Shown here in pieces: positions 14,290 through 55,565 of a stretch of 64,000 nt of DNA (the first letter of the stretch is position 1; each line of letters begins with the position of its first letter). A program made the translations under genes and the position numbers. The notes beneath the pieces were generated by a model, which was not told the DNA's origin, searched no databases, and saw only the letters and a list, made by a program, of their open reading frames with translations. Source of the stretch: Zanthoxylum bungeanum (taxonomy: Eukaryota; Streptophyta; Magnoliopsida; Sapindales; Rutaceae); the NCBI GenBank assembly GCA_019454045.1, contig SKCR01034800.1, forward strand, positions 1 to 64,000. Direction: 5' to 3'.

Positions 14290-14294
14290 GCATC

Positions 14295-27750: not shown

Positions 27751-28119
27751 TTACTCAGTGTTAACCACAGATTGAGTGTCTAAGATCAGGAAATCAACAG
27801 TGTAGTAGAATTTATCAATTTGTAGTAAAATATCCTCAACTACTCCCTGTGGTGTTCTGGTAGAGCAATTAGCTAACTGTAAAACCACATATGTAGGTTT
27901 GATCTCTCCGAGTCCTAGCTGCTTATAGATAGAATATGGAATGAGATTAACACTAGCACCTAAATCTAGTAAAGTCTGACCAAACTCATATATGCCAATG
28001 TGACAAATAATGGTGGGACATCCTGGATTTTTATGTTTTGGTGGAGTCCTTTGTTCAATTACTGCACTTGCTTGCTCTGTTAGGAATGCAATCTTTTTCA
28101 CATGATGCTTTCTTTTCAT
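27751..28119 (-). pseudogene. Gypsy retropepsin (aspartic protease) remnant of element C
   Basis: A 122-codon frame with 'CPTIICHIGIYEFGQTLLDLGASVNLIPYSIYKQLGLG', matching the Athila/Tat-type protease. The active-site triad normally reads D-x-G and here it is DLGAS. The family cuts Gag-Pol. The frame stops near 27751, and downstream (leftward) there is no RT, only non-coding sequence. It is therefore an incomplete polyprotein, probably non-functional, in an element that would depend on help from relatives. Confidence 0.85.
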
Positions 28120-31811: not shown

Positions 31812-33074
31812 GTTGAAAAGTATAATTAACCCTTCTCTATTTTGTTTAAAGTTACTATTTTTATTTATTTATATGAGTTATAAATATTAGTATGCATGTT
31901 TAAATGGGTAGGCACAAAATAATATTCATTCGATTAATGATTATTGTTATTTCATGTGATGAATGGATTTTACATTGGTTGTAAATTTTTCCGGCTCTTA
32001 TTTTTATTTTGGTTTTGATTTTAGGATATAAGGCCATAAGACCATTGTTTAGAATTGTTGTGATTTTAATTTTCTAATGTAAAATTTCAATTGTTGTAAT
32101 TTGGAGCACCGAAGTCGCAAAAGGAGCTGACACCACCTTGGAGCGTGATTTGAAGACCAATGGATGCCTTGGGAATTTTTGTACTAATTATATTAGTATA
32201 AGAAAAATAAGAGCCTAGTCAATGCAATATATATATTTTTTTATGTTATATGTATGTTTAATTCGAAATGTTTGAATAACATGTCATATAGTTTATGGTG
32301 TCTACTCTTGCATTTTACATGCCAAAACATGTTTTTGGATGCTTATATATTCTAGACATGAAATGTTATTTTATGTGATTTAAAATGTTAAATTGAAATA
32401 TGGTATGCATGGAAAACGATTAATTGGATTAATTGGTTCTAAAGTTTAAAATTTGAAATTCTAATATATGGGCTTAATAAGTGCATCATAAATTCCATTG
32501 GTACATAGGATGGAAACCCGGACATAAATTTCATAGCCAAATCCGAATGGACGGTAATATGGTCTGTACTCGGGATACAATTCCACGTACCTTTGAATTT
32601 TATAACGCACTTAGATTAATTAAATGGTTTAATTAAAATCTTGACCATTTTAATATTCCAAAATTTTAAACTAATTAGTGTTCTAGTATTTTAAGAGTTG
32701 AAATATAATATGACACTAATACTACTCAAATTAAATTAGCTTAATTGAGTAATACAATTAGTAGAGACTATGGATATTAGTGATATAAATTTTAAAAGTT
32801 GGTTAGGTCACTAATGGTGAACTTGTGTAAATAAGAGTTATGATTTAGCCGCCATAAATTTATTCACACTAGTAAATTAAAATATTAGATATTTTAAATA
32901 TAGAAATCTTAATCTTAAAAAGTGAGTGGGAGAGAGATATAGCACAGTATATCTCGCGATCTCCGTTATTAGTCCGAAAACGTGAGATTCAAAAAGTACC
33001 TCGAGACGGTTTTATTTTTGTCCCCCTACAGATGGTGTCCATTTTGGTCAATATTAAGTTTGGGTTCCGATAGG
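31812..33074 (+). mobile_element. Leader of Copia2, first part
   Basis: About 1.26 kb of AT-rich non-coding sequence between primer site and gag, interrupted at ATAGG (33070-33074) by element B and resumed at 51425. I see no open frame or known motif in it. Confidence 0.75.
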
Positions 33075-33354
33075 TGATGAGTGGTAAATCTATCATTATT
33101 TCCAACTCATTTAACCTAATATTTTGTATAGTTTCTTGAGTTTTGTGAATATTTTGATGTGTTTTGTGTTATTTTGTAGATAAATAAAGTTTCAGGATAT
33201 TCTGGAGGTGATTTGGGCCAAAACAGTGAAAATTGGACGAAAATGGCATTTTGGTAAATTCCCGCGTCACGACGCCTAACGTGCGCCGAACAGTGCTAAC
33301 GTGTGCCGGGTCCACAAATCAGAATCTGATAAAAGTTTGACTTTGCTAACGTGC

Positions 33355-33815
33355 ATCGTGCCACGTGTCACCATCACAGCCGATCTGCTAACATGCGTCG
33401 TGCCACATGTCAGCAACATATTGTGCCGACAGTCATCATCGCCACGTGTGCCACGTGTCACTCCACGTCATTGCCACGTCATCAGCCACATCACCAGGTT
33501 GACCAAGTCAAGCTGCCACCTCACCGCCATGTCATCATCAGCCAATCAGGAAGTGCCACGTGTCGCAATCCTACGGTGCCGACAGTCTCTTTCCCACATG
33601 TCGCCTCGTTATCGCTACGTCACCGACACGTCAGCGCCATGTCAGCATCAATCATTAAGTATCTAATCCTTATCTGACACATGGCGGATAAGAATCTCAT
33701 CGACCAATCAGAATCCGCCACGTGTCACAATAATTGAAGCCCAACCACCTCGCCACGTGTCACCTTATCAGCTTATCCAGAATCTTCAAACATACGAACC
33801 AGAGCATGCCACGTC
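33355..33815 (+). promoter_or_regulatory. Dense G-box/ABRE (CACGTG, ACGTGTC) array in U3 of element B
   Basis: Within about 460 bases there are six perfect CACGTG cores, most in the context GCCACGTGTC, plus at least five further ACGTC/ACGTG variants and two CCAATCAG words. CACGTGTC is the classical plant ABA-response element bound by bZIP factors. The 3' LTR has eight CACGTG in the corresponding stretch (49570-50030). The array lies directly upstream of the TATA box. Confidence 0.8.
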
Positions 33816-33878
33816 GACGGAAGCTGGCATAGCGACGCCAAAGGCCTGGCGTCGCGACGCTGGAAGCCTACGGAGGTC

Positions 33879-33884
33879 TATAAA
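33879..33884 (+). promoter_or_regulatory. TATA box of element B
   Basis: TATAAA in the context GGTCTATAAATTGAGC, followed at about +35 by a CTCTCTCTCTTCTATTC pyrimidine patch, a common plant start-site context. It is repeated at 50089-50094 in the 3' LTR. Confidence 0.75.
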
Positions 33885-35285
33885 TTGAGCTTCAAATTTC
33901 AGTTTTAGTTGTACCACTCTCTCTCTTCTATTCTATGTAAAGAGATAGTTTCGCTCTCTAGTTTCTTTTAGTTTTTAGTTTTTTTTTTAGTTTTTAGTTT
34001 TGTAAATAATTTTAATTACTTTTTGTTAATATAGTAATTTACTTTTTTACTTTTTACAGTTTTTACTATTTACCATGAGGAGGTAAATTCCCCAGTTATG
34101 GTGAAAGGTAATTCTTTTATTGTTACTATTTAGATTAATCTCCCTTAAAAATAATATATTCACTATTTAAAATATTGACTTAAAAAGGATACCGCCAGAT
34201 TGGTCGGTTGGTAATTCATTTTAATCTGGTTTAAACCTGACTAATCAAGGATACCGCCAGATTGGTCGATTGGTAATTTAATTTTGGTTCCGCCTTTATG
34301 GCTGGTTGGACTTAATTTGACTTAATCAGGTAACCGCCTTTATGGCTGGTTGGAAAAAGAATCACAAGTTTATATATTATTTTATGGGAGATATCTAAAA
34401 CAGTAAATAGTAAAAGTAATTCCTTTTACCTTAGCATTTTATTTTATTTTATTTTACTTTTCAGCTTTTACTTTATGTCTTTTACTTTTCAGTATTTTTA
34501 CTTTATGTCTTTTACTTTTAAGTTTTTACTAGCCCTAGTTATGTGTTAGTTATCTGAGGTTGTGATGAATTCTAATATCACCGGTTTATAAAGGGTTATA
34601 TTATAGTTTGTGTAATTTAAAGGTTTACTTATTAAGTCTTAATCTTAATGCTTCTTGTTGTCTGTTCACCAATAAGATTGATGTGGTAAATCTAAAATGA
34701 ACTAGACATAGGGATTTTAGGTTTCAGCCTTAGACTTAATAACCCACGATCTTCATTGAGGATAGATAACCCTTTAATAGATTTCCTTACAGGATAGACA
34801 TATACCTGTCGGGCGGGGGTAGCCATAATTGGAACTTAAACTTAATGAATCCAGATAATTTGGTTGACATAGACATATGGTTCAATTGGGTTAAACTAAG
34901 TATTTGCGTCTGACCATCGACAGAGGCTTTTGCATAATTTAGTGTTCCAGGTTAGTAAACTAATTTGTTACACAAACATAAAATAATCACTTCATCTTTT
35001 AAAAGATATCAGAATGATTCACAACCCTAGATCTTTGTGTCTTTTTTTATTTTCCTTAGTATTTTCTTTTGTATTTTTATTTATTTATTTATTTTGCAAA
35101 ACTACAATAAACCAAATCAATCAAGCAATCATTCTCTTCACCCTCAATTAGATATTTCTAAATAAATAGATTCAATAATTAATAACAATAGTAGGAATTA
35201 TGTCCTTGTGGGATCGATATTTTTATACTACTTGAACGATATGTGCGCTTGCGTTATACGTGTGTGTTTACGCCGGTCAAGTTTT

Positions 35286-35303
35286 TGGCGCCGTTGCCGA
35301 GGA
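35286..35303 (+). other. Primer-binding site of element B (tRNA-Asp)
   Basis: TGGCGCCGTTGCCGAGGA begins six bases after the LTR end and matches the complement of the plant tRNA-Asp 3' end with one mismatch, the site used by Athila/Tat-type gypsy elements. Confidence 0.88.
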
Positions 35304-35414
35304 CTTATTTTTCTTGAGTTATTAATTTTGAAGCTATCCAATTTACTTGTATATAATTTTCTTTCTTTTTATCTATAATTTTTATTTCTTTCTTTTATTT
35401 CAGGTGGTTGAAAA

Positions 35415-36668
35415 ATGGAACACTACTGGGAAATTGAAAGATTACGAACCTTACAAGAAGATACACCATACATATGGGAGCAACAGTCTGGTTTTCTGAG
35501 GCCTGTTGTGCAGCCCAATGACTATCACTGGATGTCGGAACCAAGCACTATTACTTTTGCTCATCAGAACGAAATGGGGAGATGTGTAATTTGTGATGGT
35601 AACCACCCGAGCGATCAATGCATATACTTTTCAGAGTGGCAGAATTATCAGAATCATTCAAGGTACGAAGAACCATCACATTTTCCATCTTATCCACCAT
35701 CCACCTATGATTTCCATCAACAATCAGAACCATCAGATGAAGATCAGATGATTGACATGCTCAAAGATTGGGTCAAGAAACAAGACGAAAAGTTGGATAC
35801 AATGCTTGAAACATGCCAGAATCAATTTGAAAGTATTCAGAAACAATCAGAATTCATTCAGAGACTGACAGATCAAACGAGACAGTTACCTCAAGAAGAA
35901 TTATCAGATGAAACTGACAAAGCCTTCGAGTACCCATAGATCCATAATGACACTTCAACAGAGGAGGAGGCTGAGCAGTATCAACAACCAGAGGTATCAG
36001 TTCAGGAGCCCGAACCGGCAAAGTCTCAATTTGACTTTTATTATTCAGATTCTGACGAGGATGAAGCTGATCTATTTGTACCAACTGCACCAACAACGGA
36101 GGATCAAACTTTCAATCCTCAAAATGAAGATCTTGGAGCATGCTTTACCTTGATGTTTGAAGAAGATCTATCTGAACCATCCATTCCAGCCAGATCAGAG
36201 GATGAAGACCTAAAATCTGACATTTCCTTACATCCTCAGGTTGATAATTTTGCAGCATGCATTTCACAGATGACAAATGAAGAGCTGAATACAAAAATTT
36301 TACAATACATCTATGAAGAAAAGGTGGAACAAGAAGCAGAGCAAATGGAGGAGCAAATGTCGGACCTTAATAAAGATCCAGAGCATTCAGGAGAATTAAC
36401 GCTATTTTGGGGAGTACAAATCAAAGATATCGCCCAGAAGCTTGACAGAATGGAACTCCCATTCCAAGTCAAACACCATACGAGACCTCATGATTTTCTT
36501 TCTTTCTTTTCAGGAACCACTGGAGCAACAAGGAGCAAAAAGGTGGCACGAGCACTGAATGAGACAAAACTCTTTTTGCCACTTTACCGTTGGAAGAGAC
36601 CCTTCAAAAGCAACGCTCACGGGATTTTCTTTAATCGGACATCCAAAACAACATTGAAACCTCCTTAA
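35415..36668 (+). pseudogene. Gag-like frame of element B with one in-frame amber stop
   Basis: From the ATG at 35415 a single reading frame runs 417 codons to the TAA at 36666-36668, broken only by TAG at 35937-35939. The first part (174 residues) has 'CVICDGNHPSDQC', a CX2CX3HX4C knuckle like that in Athila-type Gag, then Tyr/Pro/Gln-rich sequence and a helical, possibly coiled-coil stretch ('DEKLDTMLETCQNQFESIQKQSEFIQRL'). After the stop the protein is acidic ('SDSDEDEADLF', 'EEKVEQEAEQMEEQMSDL') and ends basic ('RSKKVARALNETKLFLPLYRWKRPF'). The core Gag domain is missing, so it is a C-terminal Gag derivative or another element protein. A TTTTATTTCAG acceptor-like site lies just upstream of the ATG. 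Confidence 0.65.
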
Positions 36669-36711
36669 CATATGGATTTCAGTCACGTCTGGCTGAAGAT
36701 GAAAAATTTAG

Positions 36712-36736
36712 CGCTAGCAGGGAGGCAACCCATGCA
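36712..36736 (+). other. Conserved gypsy motif after the gag region
   Basis: GCGCTAGCAGGGAGGCAACC matches the motif in element C (minus strand, 27213-27233) and is a word commonly seen in Athila/Tat-like elements. It marks the homologous position in both and lies upstream of the LOG gene. Confidence 0.6.
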
Positions 36737-37197
36737 ATTTGTTGTAATTTTTGTTTTCATATTTTGTGTATACATGTTGTAGAGTTTTTAATTTTGTGTG
36801 TTATTTTTGTAGGGAAAAGCACAAACGGAGCATTTTAAGACAGAAGGAATTGTGTTTGGCAATCAAAGAAGAGAAACAATTCATTAGCGATGGCTGAGTA
36901 AGGAATAAAATCTTGAGACGCATCCTAATGAATTTATATTAAGCGAGTGGCGTATTGCGTACACAATTCAGTTGCCTTAATTATTGCTTTGATTCGCTTT
37001 TCTGTTGTAATTATCTTTATTTTCATAGACAGGATCCAGACTTTTTGACCTTTCAAGATTTCTTTTGTTGTTTACCTAACAATCGTCCTTTGGAAGATAC
37101 TTGTGCTATTTTTACTCACCCTTTTCAGGTACTATAAATTCAGCCTGTCATTGCACTTTTGAAGGCATCCAAAGTTGAGAAAGAAATACATATAAAA

Positions 37198-37851
37198 ATG
37201 GAAGCCACTTCAAGAAGACGAGTTGAAAACATCTGTGTGTTTTGCGGTAGTAGTGTTGGAACTAAACCACAATATGAAGAAGCAGCACAGGAATTGGGTC
37301 GAGTCTTAGCTGTAAGGAATATGCACTTAATATATGGCGGAGGAAATCTTGGACTTATGGGGATCGTTTCAAAGGCTGTACAGGAAGGAGGCAGTCATGT
37401 TTTGGGAATCATCCTAAAACCCTTGGCAGAGGTAAATCTTATTGGATCATCAAACAGAGAGGAACTGATCGTGCCAGGTATGTCTGAAGGACTGGTAGAA
37501 ATGATTAAACGTGCTGATGCTTTTATTGCTTTGCCAGGTGGCTTGGGCACATTGGAGGAAATTTTTATAGTACTATCTTGGGCGAACCTGAACATACACC
37601 ATAAACAAATTGGACTGCTCAACGTTGATGGATTTTATGATTTTCTTTGTATGTTTCTTGATGATGCTCGGAGAAATGGGTTCGTGTCAAAACCTTTAAA
37701 AAAACTCATATTCACTGCCAGAACTGCTCCGAATCTAATAGACCAACTCATAGCCTATGAACCACGAGTTGACCCTATTCTTTCAAAGATAAATTGGTCT
37801 GAGGACGATCGTGGTAAGAGGCGTAGGATTAATCTGGATCTTAACCTTTAA
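37198..37851 (+). CDS. LOG-like: LOG-family (lysine-decarboxylase-like fold) protein, captured retrocopy, variant motif
   Basis: An intact 217-residue frame. LOG enzymes release active cytokinin bases from cytokinin riboside 5'-monophosphates in the cytosol. Family hallmarks seen: 'ICVFCGSS' (12-19), 'YGGGNLGLMG' (46-55), 'PGGLGTLEE' (113-121) and 'GLLNVDGFYD' (139-148); the length is typical. The ATG at 37198 is chosen because homology starts at residue 12 and the codons further upstream (from TTG at 37159) do not include an ATG. Oddities: the normally invariant MHxRKxxM is 'MSEGLVEM' (95-102), so the phosphate-binding Arg and the Lys are lost, and the segment before it (73-94) is diverged. 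The C-terminus ends 'GKRRR' then 'LDLNL', a possible nuclear signal and EAR motif. Plant LOG genes are normally split by introns and this copy has none. It lies between LTRs with a target duplication, so it is carried by element B. Identity of the fold is secure; catalysis is doubtful. Confidence 0.92.
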   Translation: MEATSRRRVENICVFCGSSVGTKPQYEEAAQELGRVLAVRNMHLIYGGGNLGLMGIVSKAVQEGGSHVLGIILKPLAEVNLIGSSNREELIVPGMSEGLVEMIKRADAFIALPGGLGTLEEIFIVLSWANLNIHHKQIGLLNVDGFYDFLCMFLDDARRNGFVSKPLKKLIFTARTAPNLIDQLIAYEPRVDPILSKINWSEDDRGKRRRINLDLNL

Positions 37852-38367
37852 TTTCCTGAAGAATTTCAGCTAACCAGGTATTATTTTCTAAACTCTTCTT
37901 CTACTTTTTAAGACATTGGGGACAATGTCTCATTTAGGTTTGGGGAGGAAATTAGTTGATCAGTACCTTGTTTTTAGTTTGTGTGTTATTTTTATTTTTA
38001 GTCCAAAATTTTTGAAAAATACAAATTTTTTGAAAAATACAAAAAAATTGAAAAATTTTCAAAAATTACAAAAATATTTTGCATTTTTATTTGACTAAAA
38101 AAGGTGAAATTGGTAAGAGATAGCTGAGTAAGGAGTTTCCACTCCTGAGACGTATCTCAAACCTATTTCGAAAAAAGTTAAATTTTGTTTATTTCATTTG
38201 GAATATTTAATTTGTGAATTCTCTATAATCACTAAAAGGAATCTCATATGTTCAGTTGACAATATTATCAACATTATAGTAACATACGGACAGGAGCTAA
38301 AATTGAAAATTTTGTATAATTTAGTGCTCTAGTTTAATTGGAGGAGCATCTCAAAAGCAGTGGAGTT

Positions 38368-38389
38368 AAAAAAAAAAAAAAAAAAAAAA
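38368..38389 (+). repeat. A22 tract downstream of the LOG gene
   Basis: A run of 22 A residues about 515 bases after the LOG stop, ending near the point where element D is inserted. It could be a leftover poly(A) tail from capture of a messenger or a simple repeat. Confidence 0.8.
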
Positions 38390-38437
38390 CGTCTGAGATC
38401 CGAGTTATTATGTCTGTAAGGGTGTTTTAACACCTAG
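38390..38437 (+). repeat. Left part of a tandem repeat unit split by element D
   Basis: GTCTGAG...TTTTAACACCTAG matches 48619-48655. The unit continues after element D (48535-48618), and a second unit follows to about 48710 (shared word AAAGCCAACTGGTTTGGGAG). The period is about 130 bases. Confidence 0.75.
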
Positions 38438-40394
38438 TGTTGAAATCTAATAACCATATCCCAAGATCAAAAACCAAGCAAGATATATATAATATGAATT
38501 AGATTGAAGTAATGGCGGAAACAATACTCACAAATCACCAAATGTGGATGCAATGGATGAAGCAAAATCCTCCTTTGAGCAGTGAAGATTTCGGCCAAGC
38601 AGTGAAGAGAAGCTCCAAGCTTGAATTTGATCCTTCCAAGCTCTAAGATGAGTTTCCCATATCACCTTGTATGATCCCTTGTTGGTGCTAGCCAAGATAT
38701 GTATTAAAGTTCAAACTGTACACTTTCTTCACAAAGTTCTTAGAAAATGGAAGAAGAAGGAGAGCCAAAAACAGTTCACTGGTTTCGGTCAAGAGAGGGA
38801 GAGCAAGATCTGATTTTTTGTTTCAAAAATCAATTTATATTTATGTTATAATTATATTAAATAATATATAAATATAACACAAGCCATGCAAAGACTTAGA
38901 GTGTCTAACACTCAATTTCCATGCATTATCTTTGAGTGCTTTGTACACTATCTTCATGCATTGCATCTTGATTAAAAAATACAAATAATGACAAGTGTCA
39001 TGTGGGGGCCCCACACGTTTCCAAATGAAAGTGGGCCCACTTGCACTCACGCGTTCGGGTTCGATATTTCCGAAATATCGAGCTTACGTCGCGACGTTAA
39101 TTAAATCGAATTTAAATAAATAATACGCCTAGCGAATTTATTATTTACGTCGCTAACGAATTAATTCTAAATTAATTCGTTTGCCCGAATAAAATCTAAT
39201 TTCAATTTCGCGTCGGAATCGAATTCCGTTTATTATATCGAATATAATAATTTTACGATTAATTCTAAATTAATCGATCTCTCTCTTTATATAGTACTTT
39301 ATCCAAGATAAAGTCTCTCCGTAATTAATCCAAGATTAATCGAGTTTGAATCATACGTCATCGGTGAATCTTCGGGAAGCGACCCAAGAGACCTCTAGAT
39401 ATGTTGGCAGTAAATCCGGTTGTCGAACTATCCGAACACGTACGTACCAAGTACTACGCTTTTACCGATTTACAAGACAAGGTTAGCTTCTAGCAAAACG
39501 CCATGCCTACCCAATTCTCTAGAAATATTCTTACTGGAATATTAGATCTATAACAGGCGTAGTATACCGTAGTATAGTGTATATCGAACCAGTATCGGAT
39601 GATCACATGCTAGGGCTGGGGCTGGATAAGTGTCTGCCCCGTCCGAAACACATATCGGATGTCAAGCAACCAGTCTCTTTGAATCGGATAATCCTGACCT
39701 AGTCATATTATCCCGATGGTTGCAACCATTATAGAGTACTAGTTCTGAATCCCTCGCGATCATCATCTCCATATGTCTGAAGTGATACTTCCATCTTGAT
39801 ATCACATCAATACACTACGATTCTCGATACCGAAGATAACACAGAAAACACGTTACACAACTTAAACCGCCAACCACCTAAATTAAATTTTACCGATTGT
39901 CGTAAGTACTAGCGATGCAAATCTCAGGTTAAGATCATATGCACCTACCCTGAAGCGGACTCCCATAGACACGCAGACATACTACCAATGGGATTCCGCG
40001 GGGTCTATCCAGAGCGAAGCTGTTTTCCGTACCATCGGTAAAAACAAAACCTCCCTACCGCACTTGCATAAGTATCCTATACTTAAATATATGAGAACTA
40101 TGCCGTTGTGCCCTCACAACATGCACGAGTGCAGTACTAGTCTATTCCGCATTATCGATGTCCAGTCTCGATAATACTACGACTAGGGATATTTAATGAT
40201 TAAACCTTTATGGATTGATACTGTCTCATATCATCTCAATCCGGAACTAATCATAGGGACTTTTACCATTTATATATCAAAGTAAATAAATTACAAAACG
40301 GTAAAAGGCAATTTCATTACTACATAGTTAATTTTGTACAATAATACAATATCATTTACAAAATAGTGACGCTATGGGACATTACTGTCTAACA
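38438..40394 (-). repeat. Left (3') LTR of element D
   Basis: TGTTGAAATC...CTGTCTAACA. Near-identical to 46579-48534 except for scattered indels and one dense patch of differences at about 39820-39895. It contains a palindrome array at 39096-39342. Confidence 0.95.
39096..39342 (-). other. Palindrome array in left LTR of D
   Basis: Successive inverted repeats with arms such as ACGAATTAATT, CGGAAT, ATTATAT, CGATTAATT, ACTTTATC and ATTAATC, separated by CTA, CGA or CAA (TAG, TCG or TTG in element sense). The first includes an 11-bp perfect arm. Confidence 0.85.
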
Positions 40395-40409
40395 ATCTCC
40401 CACTTGGCC
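40395..40409 (-). other. Polypurine tract of element D
   Basis: Minus strand GGCCAAGTGGGAGAT directly beside the 3' LTR. Confidence 0.88.
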
Positions 40410-41212
40410 TATAGCCAGTCACTCAAGCATCTAATACCTGAACTATGTACATGTCGCTCAAACTTTTCCCGAGGAATAGCCTTCGTCAGCGGATCTGCAA
40501 TATTATCCTCTGATGCGATCTTCTCGATCTTCACATCGCCACGATGTATGATCTCTCGAATCAGATGGAATCGTCGAAGAACATGTTTGGATCGTTGATG
40601 AGACCTTGGTTCCTTAGCCTGTGCTATAGCCCCGCTATTGTCACAATACAATGGCACGGGCTCAGCTGCTAACGGAACTACTCCTAATCCAATTAGGAAT
40701 TACGGATCCAAACTGCCTCTTTTGCTGCTTCAGCTGCTGCAATGTACTCCGCTTCAGTTGTTGAATCGGCAACAGTATCTTGCTTGGAAGATTTCCAGCT
40801 CACACTGCTCCGTTATTCAAGCAAAATATGTACCCGGTTTGCGACTTAAAGTCGTCTCTGTCGGTTTGGAAACTTGCATCAGTATACCAGATACCTCAAG
40901 TTCTCCATCTCCATAGATTAAGAAAACATCCTTAGTTCTTTTAAGATACCTAAGGATATTCTTAACCGCCATCCAGTGATCCTGTCCTGGATCGGCCTGA
41001 TATCGACTGCACATGCTCAAAGCATAGGACACATCAGGTCGTGTACATATCATGGCATACATGATCGATCCGACTGCCGAGGCGAACGGAGTCCGACTCA
41101 TGTTGTCTCTCTCATCTTGTGTTTTAGGACACATGTCCCTAGATAGAAAGACGCCATGTGATGTTGGCAACAGTCCCTTCTTGGACTGATCCATGTTGAA
41201 TCTCTTCAACAC
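40409..41212 (-). pseudogene. Element D RT end and RNase H
   Basis: 41212-40817 gives 'MLKRFNMDQSKKGLLPTSHG', 'TPFASAVGSIMYAMICTRPDVSYALSMCSRYQADPG' and 'ILRYLKRTKDVFLIY'. A frameshift at about 40890 follows, and the RNase H region ('VADSTTEAEYIAAAEAAKEA') is in another frame. The final frame, 40657-40409, has 'YCDNSGAIAQAKEPRSHQRSKHVLRRFHLIREI' and 'SEDNIADPLTKAI'. RNase H would remove the RNA strand during reverse transcription. All domain words are intact; only the reading frame is broken. Confidence 0.88.
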
Positions 41213-43192
41213 TTTATCAATATATGTACTCTGGGAGAGTCCAAGTAGCTTCTAGATCTATCCCGGTAGATCTTTATTCCTAGAATAAAAGCTGCTTCTC
41301 CCAGATCTTTCATGGAGAATTTCAATGAAAGCCAAGCTTTCACCGACGTTAACATGGGAATGTCATTGCCTATTAGCAATACATCGTCGACATAAAGGAC
41401 AATAAAAGTCAGTGCACTCCCACTAACCTTCTTATACACACAAGGATCATCCACGTTTTGAATGAAATCATATTCTTTTATGACCTCATCAAAACGTTGG
41501 TTCCATGACCTCGATGCTTGCTTCAGTCCATAAATGGACCGATTTAACTTACAAACCTTGTTTGCAAGTCTTGTGTGCGATAAAACCGTCAGGTTGTTGC
41601 ATATAAACATCCTCCAACAGGTTTCCGTTAAGGAAAGCGGTTTTAACGTCCATCTGCCATATTTCGTAATCGTAATATGCAGCTATCGCAAGCATTATCC
41701 GAATGGATTTAATCATGGCAACGGGTGAGAAAGTTTCGTCATAATCAACTCCAAGTTGTTGACGATACCCCTTCGCTACAAGCCTAGCTTTGTACGTTTG
41801 AACGTTGCCATCCATGTCTGTCTTCTTCTTGAAGACCCATTTGCATCCAATAGGCTTTACGCCTTCTGGTGCATCAACCAGTGTCCAAACTTGGTTGGTA
41901 TACATGGAATCCATTTCGGCCTTCATGGCCTCTTGCCATAAAGTGGATTCGATACCCTGTATCGCTTCCTCATACGTGGCCGGTTCAGTATCCTCAATAA
42001 GATTAATATCTACATGAGGTGAGATCAGGAATCCATACCTCTCAGGTATTACCCTGACTCTCTCCGACCTACGTAGCCCTTGTGTAATTGAAGATTGTGG
42101 TTCAGTCTCATCCTGGATGGACTGTTCATGTTCCGTTCTAGATTCAATGCCAGGAACAGTATCACTACGACTTTCATCGAGTTCTACTTTCCTCCCACTA
42201 ACCACTGCATTTATGAATTCCTTCTCAAGGAAAACTGCATGTAGAGCAACAAATACTTTGTTCTCTTTTGGGTTATAGAAGTAATATCCTTTGGTTTCCT
42301 TAGGATATCCAACAAATAGGCATTTATCTGATTTGGGTTCAAGTTTGGTACCTTCCAAACGTTTGACGTATGCCCAGCAACCCCAAATCTTCAGGAATGA
42401 GAAACCTGGTTTCTTTCCTGTCCATATCTCATACGGAGTCTGTTCAACAGACTTTGACGGAACCCTATTCAAAATAAGAATTGCACTTTCTAATGCATGT
42501 CCCCAGAAGGATATAGGTAGCTCAGTGCGACTCATCATCGACCTTACCATGTCCAGCAAGGTACGGTTTCTCCGTTCAGACACACCATTTAATTGTGGTG
42601 TTCCAGGAGGAGTCCATTGTGAAAGAATACCATATTCTTTCAAGTAATCTTGAAACTCATTACTTAAGTATTCGCCACCACGGTCCGACCGTAATGTTTT
42701 AATACTCTTGCCTGTTTGTTTTTCAACTTCGTGTCGAAACTCTTTGAATTTCTCAAAAGTTTCCGACTTGTGTATCATAAGATACACATAACCATAACGT
42801 GATGCATCATCCGTAAAGGTTACGAAGTATCGATATCCACCTCTAGCCTGGCTAGACATGGGCCCACAAACGTCACTATGAACGAGGGCTAACAGTTCAG
42901 TGGCGCGTTCACCTTTACCACTAAAAGGTGATTTAGGCATTTTGCCTAACAAACAAGATTCGCAGACGTCATATGAATTTGGATCAAATCCGTCCAAGTA
43001 CCCACTCTTCGAAAGTGTGGATATGCGAGTCTTGTTGATGTGTCCCAGACGACAATGCCACAAATAAGTTTCTTCTTTTGGATTACTCATTTTGAGCCTT
43101 TTGTTTGTTATTTTACATTTTGGAGATTCATTTATATTCAAAATATAAAGACCATTATTTGCATCAGCACTGCAAATTTCTGCATCATTCAT
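41206..43192 (-). pseudogene. Element D integrase and reverse transcriptase
   Basis: 43192-41549 (547 codons): GAG-pre-integrase 'WHCRLGHINKTRISTL..VCESCLLGKM', then integrase with the catalytic residues in 'LVHSDVCGPM', 'VTFTDDASRYGYV' and 'QLNGVSERRNRTLL', then the start of RT 'GVKPIGCKWVFKKKTDMDGNVQTYKARLVAKGYRQ' and 'MDVKTAFLNGNL'. A frameshift at about 41580 moves RT to the frame 41610-41206, which has 'VCKLNRSIYGLKQASRSWNQRF' and the active-site 'LYVDDVLLIGND'. RT and integrase are complete in content, but the frame is broken at 41580 and again at about 41240. It could be revertant-close or affected by sequencing errors. Confidence 0.92.
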
Positions 43193-43623
43193 ATATAAAT
43201 AACACCTGTGTTTTTAAATACAAAAGTGTACCCTGTTTGGGTTAACAAAGATACAGAAATAATATTCCTAGTTAAACTAGGAACAAAATAACAGTCATTT
43301 AGTTTAAGTACATGCCCCGAGGGCAGTTCCAAAACAAAAGTGCCTACGGCCAAAACAGCAACAGAAGTTCCATTTCCAACACGTAGATCAACCTCCCCCG
43401 AAGCCAGTCTCCTGCTATCATGCAGATCCTGCACATCAGTACAAATATGAGAACCACAGCCAGAATCAAAAATCCAATTTTTATTAAGACTTGAAGTAGT
43501 CATATTTATCTCAATAACAAACATACCTGAGGCCGGAGCCTTGCCCGCCTGTATGTCCTCCTTATGTCCCTTGTTCATGCGGCAGTCACGCTTCCAGTGA
43601 CCTCTTTTGCCGCATTTAGGCAA
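43189..43623 (-). pseudogene. Element D zinc knuckle and aspartic protease
   Basis: A 144-codon frame with 'CGKRGHWKRDC' (the CCHC knuckle that packages element RNA) followed by 'NWIFDSGCGSHICTD', the D-S-G retropepsin site, and 'GVCGTFVLEL'-type core residues up to 'YFVPSLTRNIISVSLL'. It is out of frame with gag on its right and with integrase on its left, each by a small indel. In copia elements these are normally one frame. Confidence 0.9.
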
Positions 43624-44369
43624 ACATCTTGAGACTTGTCCCTTGGCTTCCCAGAAGCCTTTGTTGACTTGGCCTTGCCTTTGTTCTTATGCTTCTTCTT
43701 CTTAACACCCCCAGTTGCCTTGAGCCCAGCTTTCGGCGTTTGAGATGTTGTTGCAAAGTGCGCCTCGCGCTTGTTGCCTTTCAGAAGTTCTTTCTCTGAC
43801 TCCTTGAGAATTGACAACAACTCTCCAAGAGTGTCATCCGAATTCATCAGTTTGTAGTTGATGACAATCTGTTTCCAAGTATCGGGTAGTGACTGTAGAA
43901 GTACATCTATAGCCAGCTCAGACTCCAAGACTATACCCATACAAGCCAGTTCATCAATATCTGCTATCATTTGAGTCCCATGGACCTCAACAGAACTACC
44001 ATCAGTCATACGGGTGCGAAAGATCCTCTTCACCAACTCGTACCTCGCCATCCGCTTATTAGTGCGGTGAAGATCTTGCAATCTTGCCATCATATTATAA
44101 GGATCCAAGTCCCTATTTTGGCGACGAAAGTGTTGAGTCATTGAAGCAAGCATAATCGACTGAGCTGTGTCACAATCATCACTGTGAGTTTTCCATAACT
44201 CCAGCTCAAGTGGCTCAGTGGGCTTAGGCCCGAGAGGTCTCTGAATAGTATACAGTATCCTCTCTGCCCCAAGGACTATCCTTAGGTTCATTTCCCAATC
44301 AGCGAAGTTTGTCCCTCTAAAGACATTGTCTCCCATGATAATGTCACGGACATTTACCTTGCTAGCCAT
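43575..44369 (-). pseudogene. Element D gag
   Basis: From the ATG at 44369, 264 codons: 'GDNVFRGTNFADWEMNLRIVLGAERILYTIQRPLG', 'SIMLASMTQHFRRQN', 'DIDELACMGIVLESELAIDVLLQSLPDTWKQIVINYKLMN' (UBN2-type copia Gag) and a lysine-rich linker. It then runs into the knuckle region in the wrong frame ('DVCLNAAKEVTG'), so a one-base shift removes the knuckle from this frame. Apart from that the Gag is full length. Confidence 0.9.
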
Positions 44370-46562
44370 CTTAACTACGATAGTCCAACTATCTAGTTAA
44401 CGAAAAAATGGGTACAGTCAAACTGTTACAAGAAAAATAACATTTTTATTAGTCCAACTAATGTTAAAAATTGACGAAATAAATTTTTGTAAGCGCGTAA
44501 AGCTAAGTATCTGAATGAAATTGCAAACTCAATACTAGCCTCCCACTATTTTCTACAAGTCTCTAACCCTCTGTTGAGTACTCGGGAAATCCAATTTCCT
44601 AGTGGGCTAGGATCCCGTTAAATAACACACAACCTTGACTTTGGCCAACAAGTTGTATGATATTTAACTAGGTAGATCTCGAAGATCAATTGGATCCCAT
44701 CCAATTCCTAGATCCGGTAGGTGGACATCCAAGTCCGAAACATATATATCTAATACATACGTCAATGTATCCAATACATTTTCCTAACCATTTCCTCTGA
44801 ATCAACTAAGCCTTGGCTTTGGCACAACAAACCTAATGATTCCAGTTAAGCGGGACCCATTGACAAGGAAAGTTTCGTAATCAATGTCGATGGACAAGAA
44901 GTGATCTTGACTTGGCCAACAAATCACAACTTGGACAGGACACCGATGTGTAACAAAACTCTCATGATTCAAACACATCCTCAATTGACAAAGGTCTTGA
45001 CTTTGGCCAACAAACCAATGCCAATTTTGGATCTTGAGAAAGAATCACTCAACGGAAGGAAAATCGCTTAATATTGTTTGAGGGATTTTTCGCGTAATTG
45101 GCAACCAATTAATTTATCTTTGTTAGGTCTCATCATCATACACCCTTAAGCATGCTTCTAAAACATCATAAAGTGCATAAAGTAAAGTAATAGTGATATA
45201 CGGATGGATATATAAACAACTTGTTCCTAGAACAAATCACTCCCTTCCTCTCCCCGCTAGCACTATTCTACTTCTACCAAATTACATAATACAATAAGAG
45301 AAACCTCATTTACATTGAGGGGAATTAGGTGAGAAGAGAATACATAGAGATTAAGAGATAAGGCTGGACACGCAGGTCCAATTTATAAATTCCAAATTTA
45401 CAATAATTTCTAAAATTACCCTTCCCTTCTAATATCCATCCGATATGCACTATTCATACAACACATCCACATTCATTCATTCATTCAAGGCATGTTATAC
45501 AACCAATCTAATCCAATTAATTAGTCTTTGATTAGGTGACAATACAATGATCAAACAATTGTTTGCATTTGCGCGAGTCCAACTCGTTTTGAGATAAATA
45601 CATATTGTATGAATTCACGAATTATATCGAACTACTCGTTAAATCCAATTTAAGTCGTATTCAATACTAATCCTATTATTTAATTCTAAATTAAATATAT
45701 ACACTTTTATTGTGCTTTTATAACTTAGATTCCAAATCTAGTTCTATTGGGTCTCAAAGCCCAACCAACATCTAATGTCCGTTTAATTAAAGTCCGATGG
45801 GCTTTCTATTGATTTCATTAGGCTTGGGCCTTGGTCAATGTGGTCAAACCCAATTTCCAAGCCCAATAAGGAATCACCCTCATTTGCCATAAAACCAATA
45901 TCAAGCCCATAAGGCCCAATTAAACATAAAAGCCCATTTATTACATTTGGACTTAAATGGTGTGATTTAGGCCCATCTTGGATCCAATCCAAATGGTCCA
46001 AATCTACTTGGCCCAACCAAGCCCATTTATGACCAAATATAAGTTTTAGGCCCAATTCCAATTTAAGCCCAATTAACTAAATTTTAAAATTCCAAATTTT
46101 ACAACTTAATTAATTAAAGTGTATGTTCATGATTAATCCTTTAAATCAATATTTCCAAAATATCAAATTAATCTATTAATCATATTTTTATCTTAAATAC
46201 ATGTCCAACATTATTTAATCAAAAAAATCAAGTCCCTAATATGTCATCAAGCATTCGGCCAAGGTGAACAATATGGTTCCGAATTCGTTTTCAATCCAAT
46301 CAAGTCACAAATGATCATCTCCATATTATTTCAAGTCATCCAATGTCTTAAAATTAAAAAATCATCTAGTCCTCATGCTTGCATGTATTCGGCCAAGCCA
46401 CTTTGGGGTTGGAAAAATTAATCCAATTTATTTTCCATGAAATTGATGATGTATAATTCATTTTAACATACATCTAAGCATATTCAACCAAGCAAACTCA
46501 TCAAATCATGCTTCAAACAATTTTCCCCAAATAACATCCTAATATATTTGCATGCATTTTTA
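44370..46562 (-). promoter_or_regulatory. Long leader of element D with repeated motifs
   Basis: 2.2 kb without coding potential between primer site and gag. It has four copies of a CTTGACTTTGGCCAACAA-like word (44633, 44811, 44905, 44995) and, at 45740-46080, at least ten GGCCCA/AGCCCA words (TGGGCC/TGGGCT in element sense), the site II motif bound by TCP factors. The leader at 3935-4060 shares the second feature. Confidence 0.6.
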
Positions 46563-46577
46563 GGCTCAATGATACCA
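46563..46577 (-). other. Primer-binding site of element D
   Basis: Minus strand TGGTATCATTGAGCC, adjacent to the right LTR. It is close to the tRNA-Met site TGGTATCAGAGCC but has a two-base change/insertion. Confidence 0.8.
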
Positions 46578-46578
46578 T

Positions 46579-48534
46579 TGTTGGAAATCTAATAACCATA
46601 TCCCAAGATCAAAAACCAAGCAAGATATATTAAGAATGAATTAGATTGAAGTAATGGCGGAAACAATACTCACAAATCACCAAATGTGGATGCAATGGAT
46701 GAAGCAAAATCCTCCTTTGAGCAGTGAAGATTTCGGCCAAGCAGTGAAGAGAAGCTCCAAGCTTGAATTTGATCCTTCCAAGCTCTAAGATGAGTTTCCC
46801 ATATCACCTTGTATGATCCCTTGTTGGTGCTAGCCAAAGAATGTATTAAGTTCCAAACTTGTACACTTTCTTCACAAATTCTTAAGAAAATGGAAGAAAA
46901 GGAGAGCCAAAAACAGTTCACTGGTTTCGGTCAAGAGAGGGAGAGAGCAAGATCTGATTTTTGTTTCAAAAATCAATTTATATTTATGTTATAATTATAT
47001 TAAATAATAATATAAATATAACACAAGCCATGCAAAGACTTAGAGTGTCTAACACTCAATTTCCATGCATTATCTTTGAGTGCTTTGTACACTATCTTCA
47101 TGCATTGCATCTTGATTAAAAAATACAAATAATGACAAGTGTCATTGTGGGCCCCACACGTTTCCAAATGAAAGTGGGCCCACTTGCACTCACGCGTTCG
47201 GGTTCGATATTTCCGAAATATCGAGCTTACGTCGCGACGTTAATTAAATCGAATTTAAATAAATAATTACGCCTAGCGAATTTATTATTTACGTCGCTAA
47301 CGAATTAATTCTAAATTAATTCGTTTGCCCGAATAAAATCTAATTTCAATTTCGCGTCGGAATCGAATTCCGTTTATTATATCGAATATAATAATTTTAC
47401 GATTAATTCTAAATTAATCGATCTCTCTCTTTATATAGTACTTTATCCATATAAAGTCTCTCCGTAATTAATCCAAGATTAATCGAGTTTGAATCATACG
47501 TCATCGGTGAATCTTCGGGAAGCGACCCAAGAGACCTCTAGATATGTTGGCAGTAAATCCGGTTGTCGAACTATCCGAACACGTACGTACCAAGTACTAC
47601 GCTTTTACCGATTTACAAGACAAGGTTAGCTTCTAGCAAAACGCCATGCCTACCCAATTCTCTAGAAATATTCTTACTGGAATATTAGATCTATAACAGG
47701 CGTAGTATACCGTAGTATAGTGTATATCGAACCAGTATCGGATGATCACATGCTAGGGCTGGGGCTGGATAAGTGTCTGCCCCGTCCGAAACACATATCG
47801 GATGTCAAGCAACCAGTCTCTTTGAATCGGATAATCCTGACCTAGTCATATTATCCCGATGGTTGCAACCATTATAGAGTACTAGTTCTGAATCCCTCGC
47901 GATCATCATCTCCATATGTCTGAAGTGATACTTCCATCTTGATATCACATCCAATACACTACGATTCTCGATAAACCCAGAAGAGGTATACACAGAACTC
48001 GTTAAAGCCCTGGACCACCAAACCTAAATTTTACCGATTGTCGTAAGTACTAGCGATGCAAATCTCAGGTTAAGATCATATGCACCTACCCTGAAGCGGA
48101 CTCCCATAGACACGCAGACATACTACCAATGGGATTCCGCGGGGTCTATCCAGAGCGAAGCTGTTTTCCGTACCATCGGTAAAACACAACCTCCTACCGC
48201 ACTTGCATAAGTATCCTATACTTAAATATATGAGAACTATGCCGTTGTGCCCTCACAACATGCACGAGTGCAGTACTAGTCTATTCCGCATTATCGATGT
48301 CCAGTCTCGATAATACTACGACTAGGGATATTTAATGATTAAACCTTTATGGATTGATACTGTCTCATATCATCTCAATCCGGAACTAATCATAGGGACT
48401 TTTACCATTTATATATCAAAGTAATAAATTACAAAACGGTAAAAGGCAATTTCATTACTACATAGTTAATTTTGTACAATAATACAATATCATTTACAAA
48501 ATAGTGACGCTATGGGACATTACTACTGTCTACA
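46579..48534 (-). repeat. Right (5') LTR of element D
   Basis: TGTTGGAAATC...CTGTCTACA. Partner of 38438-40394. It holds the palindrome array at 47239-47486 and the small sense open frame 47805-47993 seen in related LTRs. Confidence 0.95.
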
Positions 48535-49271
48535 CCTAGTGCCTAAAGCCAACTGGTTTGGGAGTCACTGGCCCAAAGCTCGTACAAATGGATCAAGATG
48601 CTGCAAAATATTTATATCTGAAGTCTGAGTAATTAAGTCCGTGGGGTGTCTTAACACCTGGGCCCTAAAGCCAACTGGTTTGGGAGTCACTGACCCAACA
48701 CTCGCTACATAGACGGAAGGTATTGTTTATAAATAAAAAATAGAGAAAAATCAAAGAAAAATCAGAAAAATGAGAAAAATTATTCCATTGCTACAAAAAG
48801 GTGTGAAATCTGATAGAACTTTAGGACAAAAATATTACCCTCTTATCACTGCACTTATGACTATTGTGGCAAAAATGAGTTGTTTTATATTATGTTACTG
48901 TGTATATGATGAATGGCAAATATAATCGGAGAATTTACTTATTCAGTAATTTACAAAAAAATAAAACAACTATTGATTTGGAGTAGAAGTTTCACCTGAT
49001 TAGTGACTAACTTCTTTATTCTCTTTTATCTTGTCTTTTTGCTTTTGTGTGCATTAGTTTCACTCCCTTTTTACTTTTGTAAAACGTTTGTGGGTATCGT
49101 TGATGTAAGCCCTCACGAGACTACAACTCGTCCACTAGGGACACCTAGGGGTTTAAAGGCTTGTTGCATATGCTAAATGCAACCGTGATCCCTACGAAAG
49201 TGGCTTAGTTAATTTATTTATGTTATTTTATGTTTTGCTAGAGGACTAGCAAAATGTTAGGTTTGGGGGTG
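48535..49271 (+). mobile_element. 3' interior and purine tract of element B
   Basis: It starts with the second half of a split tandem repeat (48535-48710), then AT-rich non-coding sequence. The 49080-49250 stretch ('GTAAGCCCTCACGAGACTAC') is the reverse complement of element C at 25980-26160. It ends in the purine tract TTAGGTTTGGGGGTG (49258-49271) directly before the LTR. Confidence 0.85.
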
Positions 49272-51419
49272 TGATGAGTGGTAAATCTATCACTATTTCC
49301 CACTCATTTAACCTAATATTTTGTATAGTTTCTTGAGTTTTGTGAATATTTTGATGTGTTTTGTGTTATTTTGTAGATAAATAAAGTTTCAGGACATTCT
49401 GGAGGTGATTTGGGCCAAAACAGTGAAAATTGGACGAAAATGGCATTTTGGTAAATTCCCGCATCGCGACGCCAAGACCTTCAGCGTCGCGACGCCTAAC
49501 GTGCGCCGAACAGTGCTAACATGCGCCGGGTCCACAAATTAGAATCTAAGAAAAGTTTGACTTTGCTAACGTGTGCTGTGCCACGTGTCATCATCACAGC
49601 CGATCTGCTAACATGCGCCGTGCCACGTGTCAGCATCCTACGGTGCCGACAGTCATCATCGCCACGTGTTCCACGTGTCACTCCACGTCATTGCCACATC
49701 ATCATCCACATCACCAGGTTGACCAAGTCAACCTGCCACCTCACCGCCACGTCATCATCAGCCAATCAGGAAGTGCCACGTGTCGCAATCCTACAGTACC
49801 GACAGTCTCTTTCCCACGTGTCGCCACGTCACCGACATGTCAGCGCCACGTCAGCATTATTCATTGAGTATCTAATCCTTATCTGACACGTGACGGATAA
49901 GAATCTCATCGACCAATCAGAAGCCGCCACGTGTCACAATAATTGAAGCCCAACCACCTCGCCACATGTCACCTTATCAACTTATCCAGAATCTTCAAAC
50001 AGACGAACCAGAGCGTGCCACGTCGACGGAAGTTGGCGTAGCGACGCCAAAGGCCCCGGCGTCGTGACGTTGGAAGCCTACCGAGGTCTATAAATTGAGC
50101 TTCAAATTTCAGTTTTAGTTGTACCACTCTCTCTCTTCTATTCTATGTAAAGAGAGAGTTTCTCTCTCTAGTTTCTTTTAGTTTTTAGTTTTTTTTTTAC
50201 TTTTTAGTTTTGTAAATAATTTTAATTACTTTTTGTTAATATAGTAATTTACTTTTTTACTTTTTACAGTTTTTACTATTTACCATGAGGAGGTAACTTC
50301 CCCAGCTAGGGTGAAAGGTAATTCTTTTACTATTACTATTTAGATTAATCTCCCTTAAAAATAATATATTCACTTTTTAAAATATTGACTTAAAAAGGAT
50401 ACAGCCAGATTGGTCGGTTGGTAATTTAATTTTGGTTCCGCCTTTATGGCTGGTTGGACTTAATTTGACTTATTCAGGTTACCGCCTTTATGGCTAGTTG
50501 GAAAAAGAATCACAAGTTTATATATTATTTTATGGGAGATATCTAAAATAGTAAATAGTAAAAGTAATTCCTTTTACCTTAGCATTTTATTTTATTTTAC
50601 TTTTCAGCTTTTACTTTATGTCTTTTACTTTTCAGTATTTTTACTTTATGTCTTTTACTTTTAAGTTTTTACTAGCCCTAAATATGTGTTAGTTATCTGG
50701 GGTTGTGATGAATTCTAATATCACCGGTTTATAAGGGTTATTTTATAGTTTGGGTAATTTAAATTTTACTTATTAAGTCTTAAGCTTAATGCTTTTTGTT
50801 GTCTGATCACCAATAAGATTGATGTGGTAAATCTAAAATGAACTAGACATAGGGATTTTAGGTTTCAGCCTTAGACTTAATAACCCACGATCTTCCTTGA
50901 GGATAGATAACCCTTTAATAGATTTCCTTACAGGATAGACATATACCTGTCGGGCGGGGGTAGCCATAATTGGAACCTAAACTTAATGAATCCAGATAAT
51001 TTGGTTGACATAGACATATGGTTCAATTGGGTTAAACTGGGTATTTGCGTCTGACCATCGACAGAGGCTTTTGCATAATTTAGTGTTCCAGGTTAGTAAA
51101 CTAATTTATTACACAAACATAAAATAATCACTTCATCTTTTAAAAGATATCAGAATGATTCACAACCCTAGATCTTTGTGTCTTTTGTTATTTTCCTTAG
51201 TATTTTCTTTTGTCTTTTTTTTATTTATTTATTTTGCAAAACTACAATCAACCAAATCAATCAAGCAATCATTCTCTTCACCCTCAATTAGATATTTGTA
51301 AATAAATAGATTCAATAATTAATAACAATAGTAGAAATTAAGTCCTCGTGGGATCGATATTTTTATACTACTTGAACGATACGTGCGCTTGCGTTATACG
51401 TGTGTGTTTACGCCGGTCA
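49272..51419 (+). repeat. 3' LTR of element B
   Basis: TGATGAGTGGTAAATC...GCCGGTCA, followed by ATAGG. It has eight CACGTG cores at 49570-50030 and a TATA box at 50089. It is about 57 bases shorter than the 5' LTR, mainly because one repeat segment near 50400 is single-copy. Confidence 0.93.
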
Positions 51420-51424
51420 ATAGG

Positions 51425-51727
51425 ATAAAGATTCTAGATGTATTTTGTGAACTGACCTACCCTACGGCGGCACTTCACTAGTTAAGTCCAAGGGTCCCGA
51501 AACGACGGGTCACACTCAATAAGGAATGGTTAAATGTTAATCAAAATTCCTTGATCATATCTAATGGTATTTGGTTAATATAGGAATAAGAGTTATTTCC
51601 ATATATATTAATCAATTGAGATTGTCTTGATATATCATGCATCATGTTTAATTTTATGCCAAAATTATTTGATAATTTTAATATGCGATGAATGAATTTT
51701 AAATGCATGTTTATTTGTTTTTTAGCC
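51425..51727 (+). mobile_element. Leader of Copia2, second part
   Basis: Continues from 33074 after element B. Its last 70 bases (AATTTTAATATGCGA and the run to the start codon) match the Copia1 leader at 11285-11342. Confidence 0.8.
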
Positions 51728-52531
51728 ATGGTCTCTCCGATTATTTCTATACTCTCATATGATAAATTAACATGAGAAAACTATGTTAAGTGGAAAAGTA
51801 ACATGAACGCTATCCTGGTTTGTGAAGACCTAAAATTTGTCCTGACGGAGGAGTGTCCTCCCAAGCCGGCCAGAAATACTGGCCAAGCTGTGTGCGATGC
51901 CTACCAAAAATGGGTCGCAGCTAATGAGAAGGCCCGTTACTGCTTGCTAGCAGGGATGTCTGAGGTTCTTACTGCAAAGCATGAGCCTATGGCTTCAGCA
52001 TCTCAGATGATGGAGTCATTGTAGGGCATGTTTGGGCAGTCTTCGGAGCATCAACGTCATGAGGCCATGGTCTCAACGATGACTGCTAGGATGAAGGATG
52101 AAACATCAGTCCGAGAGCACATCTTGAGGATGACCCATCTTAACACTGTCGAAACCCATGATGCTCGCATTGATGAGTATAGCCATGTGACCATAATTAT
52201 GGAAACTCTTCTGAAGAGTTTCTTGCAGTTTAAAAGCAACTATGTTATGAACAAGTTTACTTTTACTTTGACCCAACTGCTTAATGAGCTCACCCATTAC
52301 GAGTCCATTCTCGTGGATCCTCGTAAGCCTAGTGTTGAGGAAAATATTGCTGAGTCTTCTAAATCTATAAAGAAGAATAATAATAGTACTGGGAAGGTCA
52401 AGGCTAAGCCCCTGAAGAAGAAGAACAAAAAAGGCTTCAAGTGTTTCCACTGCAACAAGGTCGGGCATTGGAAAATGAATTTTCCTAAATACCTTGTTGA
52501 GCTGAAGGAGAAGAAGGTTACAGGTAAATAA
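51728..52531 (+). pseudogene. Copia2 gag
   Basis: The ATG at 51728 is followed by a TNT1-94-like Gag: 'ENYVKWKSNMNAILVCEDLKFVLTEECPPKPA', 'EKARYCLLAGMSEVLTAKHEPMASA'. It has an early stop near 51773 and a TAG at 52022-52024, after which the same frame continues (52028-52531) to a knuckle, 'CFHCNKVGHWKMNFPKY', in which the last cysteine is changed to phenylalanine. Better preserved than Copia1 but not functional. Confidence 0.85.
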
Positions 52532-55551: not shown

Positions 55552-55565
55552 TGCAAGTGGGAGAT

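What the first reader, a model, noticed from the sequence alone, without database searches (positions are those of the whole stretch)
33075..51419. An LTR retrotransposon that carries a LOG (cytokinin-activating family) gene
Seen: two LTRs, a perfect ATAGG duplication, tRNA-Asp primer site and purine tract define one element. Between them, in the same orientation, lies an intact intronless LOG-family frame (37198-37851) and no pol. Known: gene capture by plant LTR elements occurs but is uncommon, and LOG genes control cytokinin activation. Inference: an mRNA of a host LOG was captured, and the element may spread copies of a hormone-related gene through the genome.
Basis: partly seen in the sequence, partly recalled or inferred. 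Interest (0 to 1): 0.92.

Follow-up and report, generated by a model that had tools for sequence, protein, structure and literature searches.

The report
Jumping element carrying a hormone-activating gene
An old, disabled copy of a plant jumping element carries a LOG-family gene, a family that switches on the growth hormone cytokinin; many other copies carry the same gene, and evolution seems to have kept it working while they multiplied.

Summary
The element is real: LTRs 33075-35279 and 49272-51419, ATAGG duplication, primer site, purine tract, intact intronless LOG-family frame (37198-37851). A host LOG gene read here has an intron that the element copies lack. A divergent sibling has RNase H, integrase and LOG in order, so the window element is a non-autonomous form of a Ty3/gypsy, probably Athila-type, lineage. 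In copies chosen without regard to LOG, private changes look neutral and shared ones constrained (N/S 2.35 against 0.81, p=0.0005): LOG was selected while elements multiplied. The window copy lacks the catalytic arginine. LOG-bearing Gypsy elements of Citrus and poplar are in print, so the kind is known. Not found in print by my searches: 16 of 20 siblings also carry a gene matching plant RNA-virus nucleic-acid-binding proteins beside LOG. What either protein does for the element is inferred.

The parts
33070..33074 (.). target-site duplication ATAGG, left copy
33075..35279 (+). 5' LTR of the outer element (TGATGAG...CGGTCA)
   Evidence: K2P 0.040 to the 3' LTR
35286..35303 (+). primer-binding site TGGCGCCGTTGCCGAGGA (tRNA-Asp type, recalled)
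   Evidence: tRNA match recalled
35415..36668 (+). ORF1, CX2CX3HX4C finger then an acidic stretch; one in-frame TAG at 35937-35939; no Pfam match
37198..37851 (+). LOG-family frame, 217 aa, intronless; PGGLGTLEE kept, catalytic Arg position 98 is Gly
37852..38432 (+). 3' interior, first half (found, at least in part, downstream of LOG in 20 of 20 fetched siblings)
38433..38437 (.). CCTAG, left target-site copy of the nested element
   Evidence: read
38438..48534 (-). nested Ty1-copia element (LTRs 38438-40394 and 46579-48534; gag, integrase and RT domains between), not part of the LOG element
48535..48539 (.). CCTAG, right target-site copy of the nested element
   Evidence: read
48540..49259 (+). 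3' interior, second half
49260..49271 (+). polypurine tract GGTTTGGGGGTG
49272..51419 (+). 3' LTR of the outer element
51420..51424 (.). target-site duplication ATAGG, right copy

Best explanation
The window holds an old, non-autonomous, decayed copy of a Ty3/gypsy (probably Athila-type) LTR retrotransposon lineage in which an intronless LOG gene is a long-standing accessory gene, placed between the pol end and the 3' LTR. Shown: copies in the same genome keep LOG in that place; a fuller sibling has RNase H, integrase, a second accessory gene and LOG in order; LOG evolved under purifying selection while the elements multiplied and drifts after insertion. Inferred: the capture happened once, long ago, by reverse transcription of a spliced host LOG mRNA (template switch in the particle), and the gene is kept because its product helps element-bearing cells, most simply by raising active cytokinin so that dividing, germline-bound cells stay transcriptionally permissive. 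The window copy itself probably no longer does this: its catalytic arginine is gone and a copia element splits it.
For: Anatomy and TSD. 150 LOG places, the cap, all 90% or more identical over residues 1/2-217, 134 of 150 without a stop, in a list ranked by LOG similarity. In 20 of 20 fetched siblings LOG is followed, at least in part, by the window's 3' interior; LTR sequence lies on both sides in 18 of 20 and an LTR pair across LOG was recovered in 17 of 20. Sample chosen by the 3' interior alone: 19 of 20 stretches hold LOG. In those 19, private variants N+stop:S 80:34, shared 34:42, p=0.0005; the other two reading frames give shared ratios 2.04 and 7.44; neutral expectation 2.3-3.3. Host LOG: one locus read shows an intron of about 0.67 kb; 30 of 33 exon matches break off at the same residue, one short of the query's end. 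RNase H and integrase 5' of LOG in a divergent copy. Siblings' LTR ages down to 0.12 My.
Against: Only 4 of 19 LOG frames in the unselected sample are free of indels and stops, so most copies are dead. Of 100 proteins of 200-260 aa (the window's own among them) 90 lack the adenine-contacting lysine of LOG and 12 lack the arginine, so activity is doubtful in part of the family. The name Athila rests on primer type and recalled features; no RT tree was made, the one RT-like piece had no Pfam match, and the Athila ORF-1 family was not matched. Whether the relatives in other species lie in elements was not tested here. gag-protease frames show a similar constraint, so LOG is not singled out. The single old capture rests on a quick tree with two plant references.
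Confidence: 0.8

Rival explanations
1. The LOG frame is kept not as a cytokinin enzyme but as a repurposed nucleotide-binding or structural protein of the element.
For: The lysine next to the catalytic arginine, which contacts adenine in CgLOG (PMC4979012 passages), is L, I or M in 90 of 100 proteins, and 12 of 100 also lack the arginine.
Against: 88 of 100 proteins and 34 of 36 indel-free copies in this genome (most of these were picked by LOG similarity) keep the arginine; PGGxGTxxE is mostly kept.
Confidence: 0.3
2. LOG is a passive passenger: it looks intact only because the copies are recent and were picked by LOG similarity.
For: The first sample was ranked by LOG protein match and its dN/dS of 0.16 is biased; in that sample even private variants show N/S 0.85. 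In the unselected sample only 4 of 19 frames are intact.
Against: In the unselected sample shared variants are depleted of amino-acid changes and private ones are not (p=0.0005), only in the true frame.
Confidence: 0.1
3. A recent, one-off capture of a host LOG mRNA by this element.
For: Intronless against an intron-bearing host gene.
Against: LOG occurs at the same place in copies whose LTR pieces are only 69-91% like the window's and in a copy whose LOG is 83% like it; relatives in Populus, Xanthoceras and Malvaceae group together apart from two Arabidopsis LOGs (rows picked by similarity to the window).
Confidence: 0.05
4. A resident host LOG gene was bracketed by unrelated LTR insertions.
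For: None beyond the presence of a LOG frame.
Against: One ATAGG duplication flanks the whole unit, LOG lacks introns, and the order recurs in 20 of 20 siblings.
Confidence: 0.01

Closest known systems
LOG (YgdH)-domain Ty3/gypsy elements of Citrus sinensis, C. clementina and Populus trichocarpa (PMC9289625, section 12 read; it cites Steinbauerova et al. 2011, not held)
   Same: LOG domain inside Gypsy-type elements; Citrus is of the same plant family (Rutaceae) as this genome probably is
   Different: Those are consensus sequences found by their RT; here the copy is pol-less, many single copies were compared, constraint on LOG is measured, and a second accessory gene stands beside it in siblings
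Athila-lineage Ty3/gypsy elements with extra ORFs (PMC6317226, passages; recalled: two Athila-like elements with LOGL4 similarity in Steinbauerova 2011)
   Same: Extra ORFs and large non-coding parts; tRNA-Asp is among the primers of non-chromoviruses
   Different: No Athila ORF-1 (PF03078) match; lineage not tested with an RT tree
Orchid Gypsy elements with an AlkB-type m6A demethylase ORF (PMC9289625, passages and section 12)
   Same: A host-type enzyme domain as an accessory ORF of a Gypsy element
   Different: Other enzyme; activity shown there in vitro, not here
Carlavirus-type cysteine-rich nucleic-acid-binding proteins (PMC3689765, passages)
   Same: PF05515 over its cut-off in 4 of 4 and PF01623 in 3 of 4 open frames of siblings' second accessory gene
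   Different: Carried by a retrotransposon, 182 aa, matched over its middle part only; absent from the window copy

Membership tests
LTR retrotransposon | two LTRs, target-site duplication, primer site, polypurine tract | tested here: met
   (primer tRNA recalled)
autonomous Ty3/gypsy element | gag-pol of its own | tested here: not met
   outside the nested element the only frames of 120 aa or more in the interior are the ORF1 pieces and LOG; no match to the siblings' gag-protease or integrase end
Ty3/gypsy, Athila lineage | RT/RNase H/integrase of the lineage | tested here: inconclusive
   divergent sibling has RT_RNaseH then rve, the Gypsy order; no RT tree; one RT-like piece unmatched
Ty3/gypsy, Athila lineage | Athila ORF-1 domain (16% of Athila elements, PMC6317226 passage) | tested here: not met
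   no PF03078 match; not required of all members
LOG-type phosphoribohydrolase | family fold and motif PGGxGTxxE | tested here: met
   TIGR00730 over cut-off, PF03641, PGGLGTLEE
LOG-type phosphoribohydrolase | catalytic arginine (Arg99 of CgLOG, position 98 here) | tested here: not met
   Gly in the window copy; Arg in 34 of 36 indel-free copies; role from PMC4979012 passages
LOG-type phosphoribohydrolase | NCBIfam equivalog NF058542 | tested here: not met
   102.1 bits against a cut-off of 300; that library names bacterial and archaeal proteins
LOG-type phosphoribohydrolase | enzyme activity on cytokinin ribotides | not testable with these tools
   needs an assay
captured host gene (retrogene type) | no introns where the host gene has them | tested here: met
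   one host locus read directly (L065), 30 of 33 places consistent
carlavirus-type NABP (siblings' second gene) | Pfam model over gathering score | tested here: met
   PF05515 in 4 of 4 open frames, PF01623 in 3 of 4

The most novel reading that the evidence does not exclude
A retrotransposon lineage of eudicots carries a two-gene host-handling cassette: a protein of the plant RNA-virus cysteine-rich nucleic-acid-binding family (some viral members suppress RNA silencing, one drives cell proliferation) next to a cytokinin-activating LOG, both kept by selection at the level of the element, so that a non-viral genomic parasite blunts silencing and favours dividing cells.
Probability: 0.25. Interest if true: 0.9.

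Novelty: new member of a known kind. Interest (0 to 1): 0.55.

Why it matters
It gives a case in which a captured hormone-pathway gene looks maintained by a mobile element rather than merely carried, in a genome with enough copies to measure it. The neighbouring virus-type gene suggests that plant retrotransposons and RNA viruses may share host-handling proteins, which is directly testable.

Tried and rejected
Viral contigs held no close relative. The ORFX family's structure prediction was poor (mean pLDDT 52.1), so no fold search was made; no solved relative (best E 0.38). An early gag N-terminus count was out of frame and was replaced by an in-frame one. The pairwise dN/dS of 0.16 was set aside as biased. 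L018 was dropped from the counts as a near twin of L017; it stays in those. L059 was dropped from the unselected sample (no LOG match). The age of L028 was set aside, its pieces overlap. A copy number could not be measured: lists are capped, and first-look candidates (70238, 42691, 7177) are not copies. pol upstream of LOG was looked for in one place only. Passages of PMC7264820, PMC11963269, PMC13317346 and PMC11593424 showed nothing on LOG in retrotransposons.
Full report
What is there. The outer LTRs are 33075-35279 and 49272-51419 with a perfect ATAGG duplication. They differ by K2P 0.040, about 5.1 My at 3.92e-9 per site and year (the rate was used for Zanthoxylum bungeanum, PMC8417289, passages seen). 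Inside lies a second LTR pair, 38438-40394 and 46579-48534, flanked by CCTAG on both sides (read), with Ty1-copia gag, integrase and RT domains on the minus strand. It is younger (K2P 0.022, about 2.8 My). So the LOG element proper is about 8.2 kb.

The LOG frame. 37198-37851 encodes 217 aa. Best solved relatives are the Arabidopsis proteins 2A33 and 1YDH (LOG3 and LOG8 by PMC4979012). PGGLGTLEE is kept. At position 98 the window has Gly; in CgLOG the matching arginine is named catalytic, and alanine at the crucial residues nearly abolished activity, one serine excepted (PMC4979012, passages). 34 of 36 indel-free copies in this genome have Arg; the window and L046 have Gly. Of 100 proteins of 200-260 aa (99 of the 120 listed relatives plus the window's own), 88 have Arg and only 10 have the adjacent Lys (three reference chains subtracted).

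Host. The assembly is 3.96 Gb in 51709 contigs. A plastid-type matK-like stretch (L064) is nearest to Zanthoxylum calcicola, 86% over 62% of the query, followed by other Sapindales, Rutaceae foremost among the named. Z. bungeanum has a 4.23 Gb assembly, GC 36.81% (PMC8417289); window GC 37.1%. Zanthoxylum is therefore likely, not shown.

Copies. Of 20 copies fetched from the first list with flanks, LOG is followed by the window's 3' interior in 20 of 20, and LTR sequence stands on both sides in 18 of 20; in L014 and L024 only the 3' side was seen. LTR identity to the window ranges from about 69 to 91% per piece while LOG is 93-96%, but this list was ranked by LOG. Five of the 20 have a window-type 5' interior; 15 have gag-protease, a C-terminal integrase piece and a further frame, ORFX, at least in part. 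Retrotrans_gag over its cut-off in L011 and an aspartyl-protease match below its cut-off in L009 support this; the integrase piece had no Pfam match and is named from recalled similarity.

Fuller sibling. A divergent copy (L029, LOG 83% like the window's, with one stop) has 5' of it RNase H (PF17919, 4.7e-29), a weak H2C2 match and an integrase core (rve, 4.3e-11), in frames broken by stops (L066), then the integrase end and ORFX. About 0.28 kb between the two stretches was not read. So LOG stands 3' of pol in the lineage, and the window form is probably an internal deletion or recombinant.

Selection. 19 of 20 hold LOG and 4 of 19 are intact. Variants seen in one copy: 75 N, 5 stop, 34 S. In two or more: 33 N, 1 stop, 42 S. 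Fisher p=0.0005. The neutral ratio expected from the frame is 2.3-3.3. In the other two frames the contrast is absent (p=0.75 and 0.17). gag (in frame, p=0.02), gag-protease (p=0.0014) and ORFX (59:15 private, 44:43 shared, p=0.0001) show the same pattern; the integrase piece and the window-type ORF1 do not reach it (p=0.34 and 0.31). These five were counted on copies picked by LOG similarity (ORF1 also on the window). In that picked sample LOG's private variants are themselves low in amino-acid changes (0.85), a sign of the bias. LOG thus behaves as a regular gene of the element.

Origin. A 38-residue query ending in a host LOG exon found 33 places, of which 30 break off one residue before the query's end, with open frames of 37-118 aa; alone this is weak, but the one locus read (L065) departs from LOG after FIALPG and resumes about 0.67 kb later. 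The element copies read straight through. Public relatives from Populus, Xanthoceras, Reevesia and Diplodiscus fall in one clade with the window's, apart from Arabidopsis LOG3 and LOG8 (SH-aLRT 97, quick tree, 43 of 121 LOG proteins chosen, two plant references, bacterial root on a long branch). Their genomic setting was not tested.

Second accessory gene. ORFX lies between the integrase piece and LOG, at least in part, in 15 of 20 siblings of the first list, and 5' of LOG in a sixteenth (L027) without that piece; in the second list in 6 of 15 (stretches of the second list are short). It is 182 aa in L013 and reaches the cut-off of PF05515 Viral_NABP in 4 of 4 open frames and of PF01623 Carla_C4 in 3 of 4. 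It has 332 relatives at E 0.001 or better; among the 120 listed, named ones are from Xanthoceras, Populus, Acer, Rhamnella and Orobanche, with mostly conserved cysteines. Carlavirus members suppress silencing in PVM and PVH; CVB p12 did not suppress silencing but acts on cell proliferation (PMC3689765, passages). Of two searches of the open library, one listed five papers, none of which joins this domain to retrotransposons by title and abstract start, and in the other no paper held a name of these two Pfam families together with 'transposable element', judged from its ranking. Steinbauerova 2011 is not held, so absence from print is not established. The window copy lacks ORFX.

Verdict. Capture and spread are right, but old and already reported in kind (PMC9289625: YgdH/LOG in Citrus and P. 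trichocarpa Gypsy consensuses; passages and section 12). What is added: copy-level evidence of constraint on LOG, the parent architecture, recent activity (LTR pair of L027 at K2P 0.0009), and the virus-type neighbour gene.

Noticed in passing
L013:4763-5362 (+), L009:4816-5310, L017:4812-5366, L019:4804-5358: Sibling elements carry a conserved 182-aa gene of the carlavirus-type nucleic-acid-binding (cysteine-rich) family between the integrase end and LOG; 332 relatives in the protein search.
   Followed up: partly
window 38438-48534: Nested Ty1-copia element in reverse orientation with CCTAG duplication.
   Followed up: yes
window 27688-28410 (-): Weak similarity (36%) to the siblings' gag-protease frame: another Gypsy-type remnant.
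   Followed up: no
window 1865-2929, 5396-6465, 63103-63999: Further copies of sequence like the nested copia element's LTR (81-88% alike), so the window is dense in this copia family.
   Followed up: no
window 11270-14294 and 51654-54587; 23096-24513 and 55561-56981: Other long repeated stretches (75-90% alike) outside the element, unclassified.
   Followed up: no
L027: Very young sibling insertion (LTR K2P 0.0009) with window-type 5' interior, the virus-type gene (in two pieces) and an intact LOG.
   Followed up: partly
L064: Plastid-type matK-like stretch, one of 35 matK matches in the assembly; used for host placement.
   Followed up: yes
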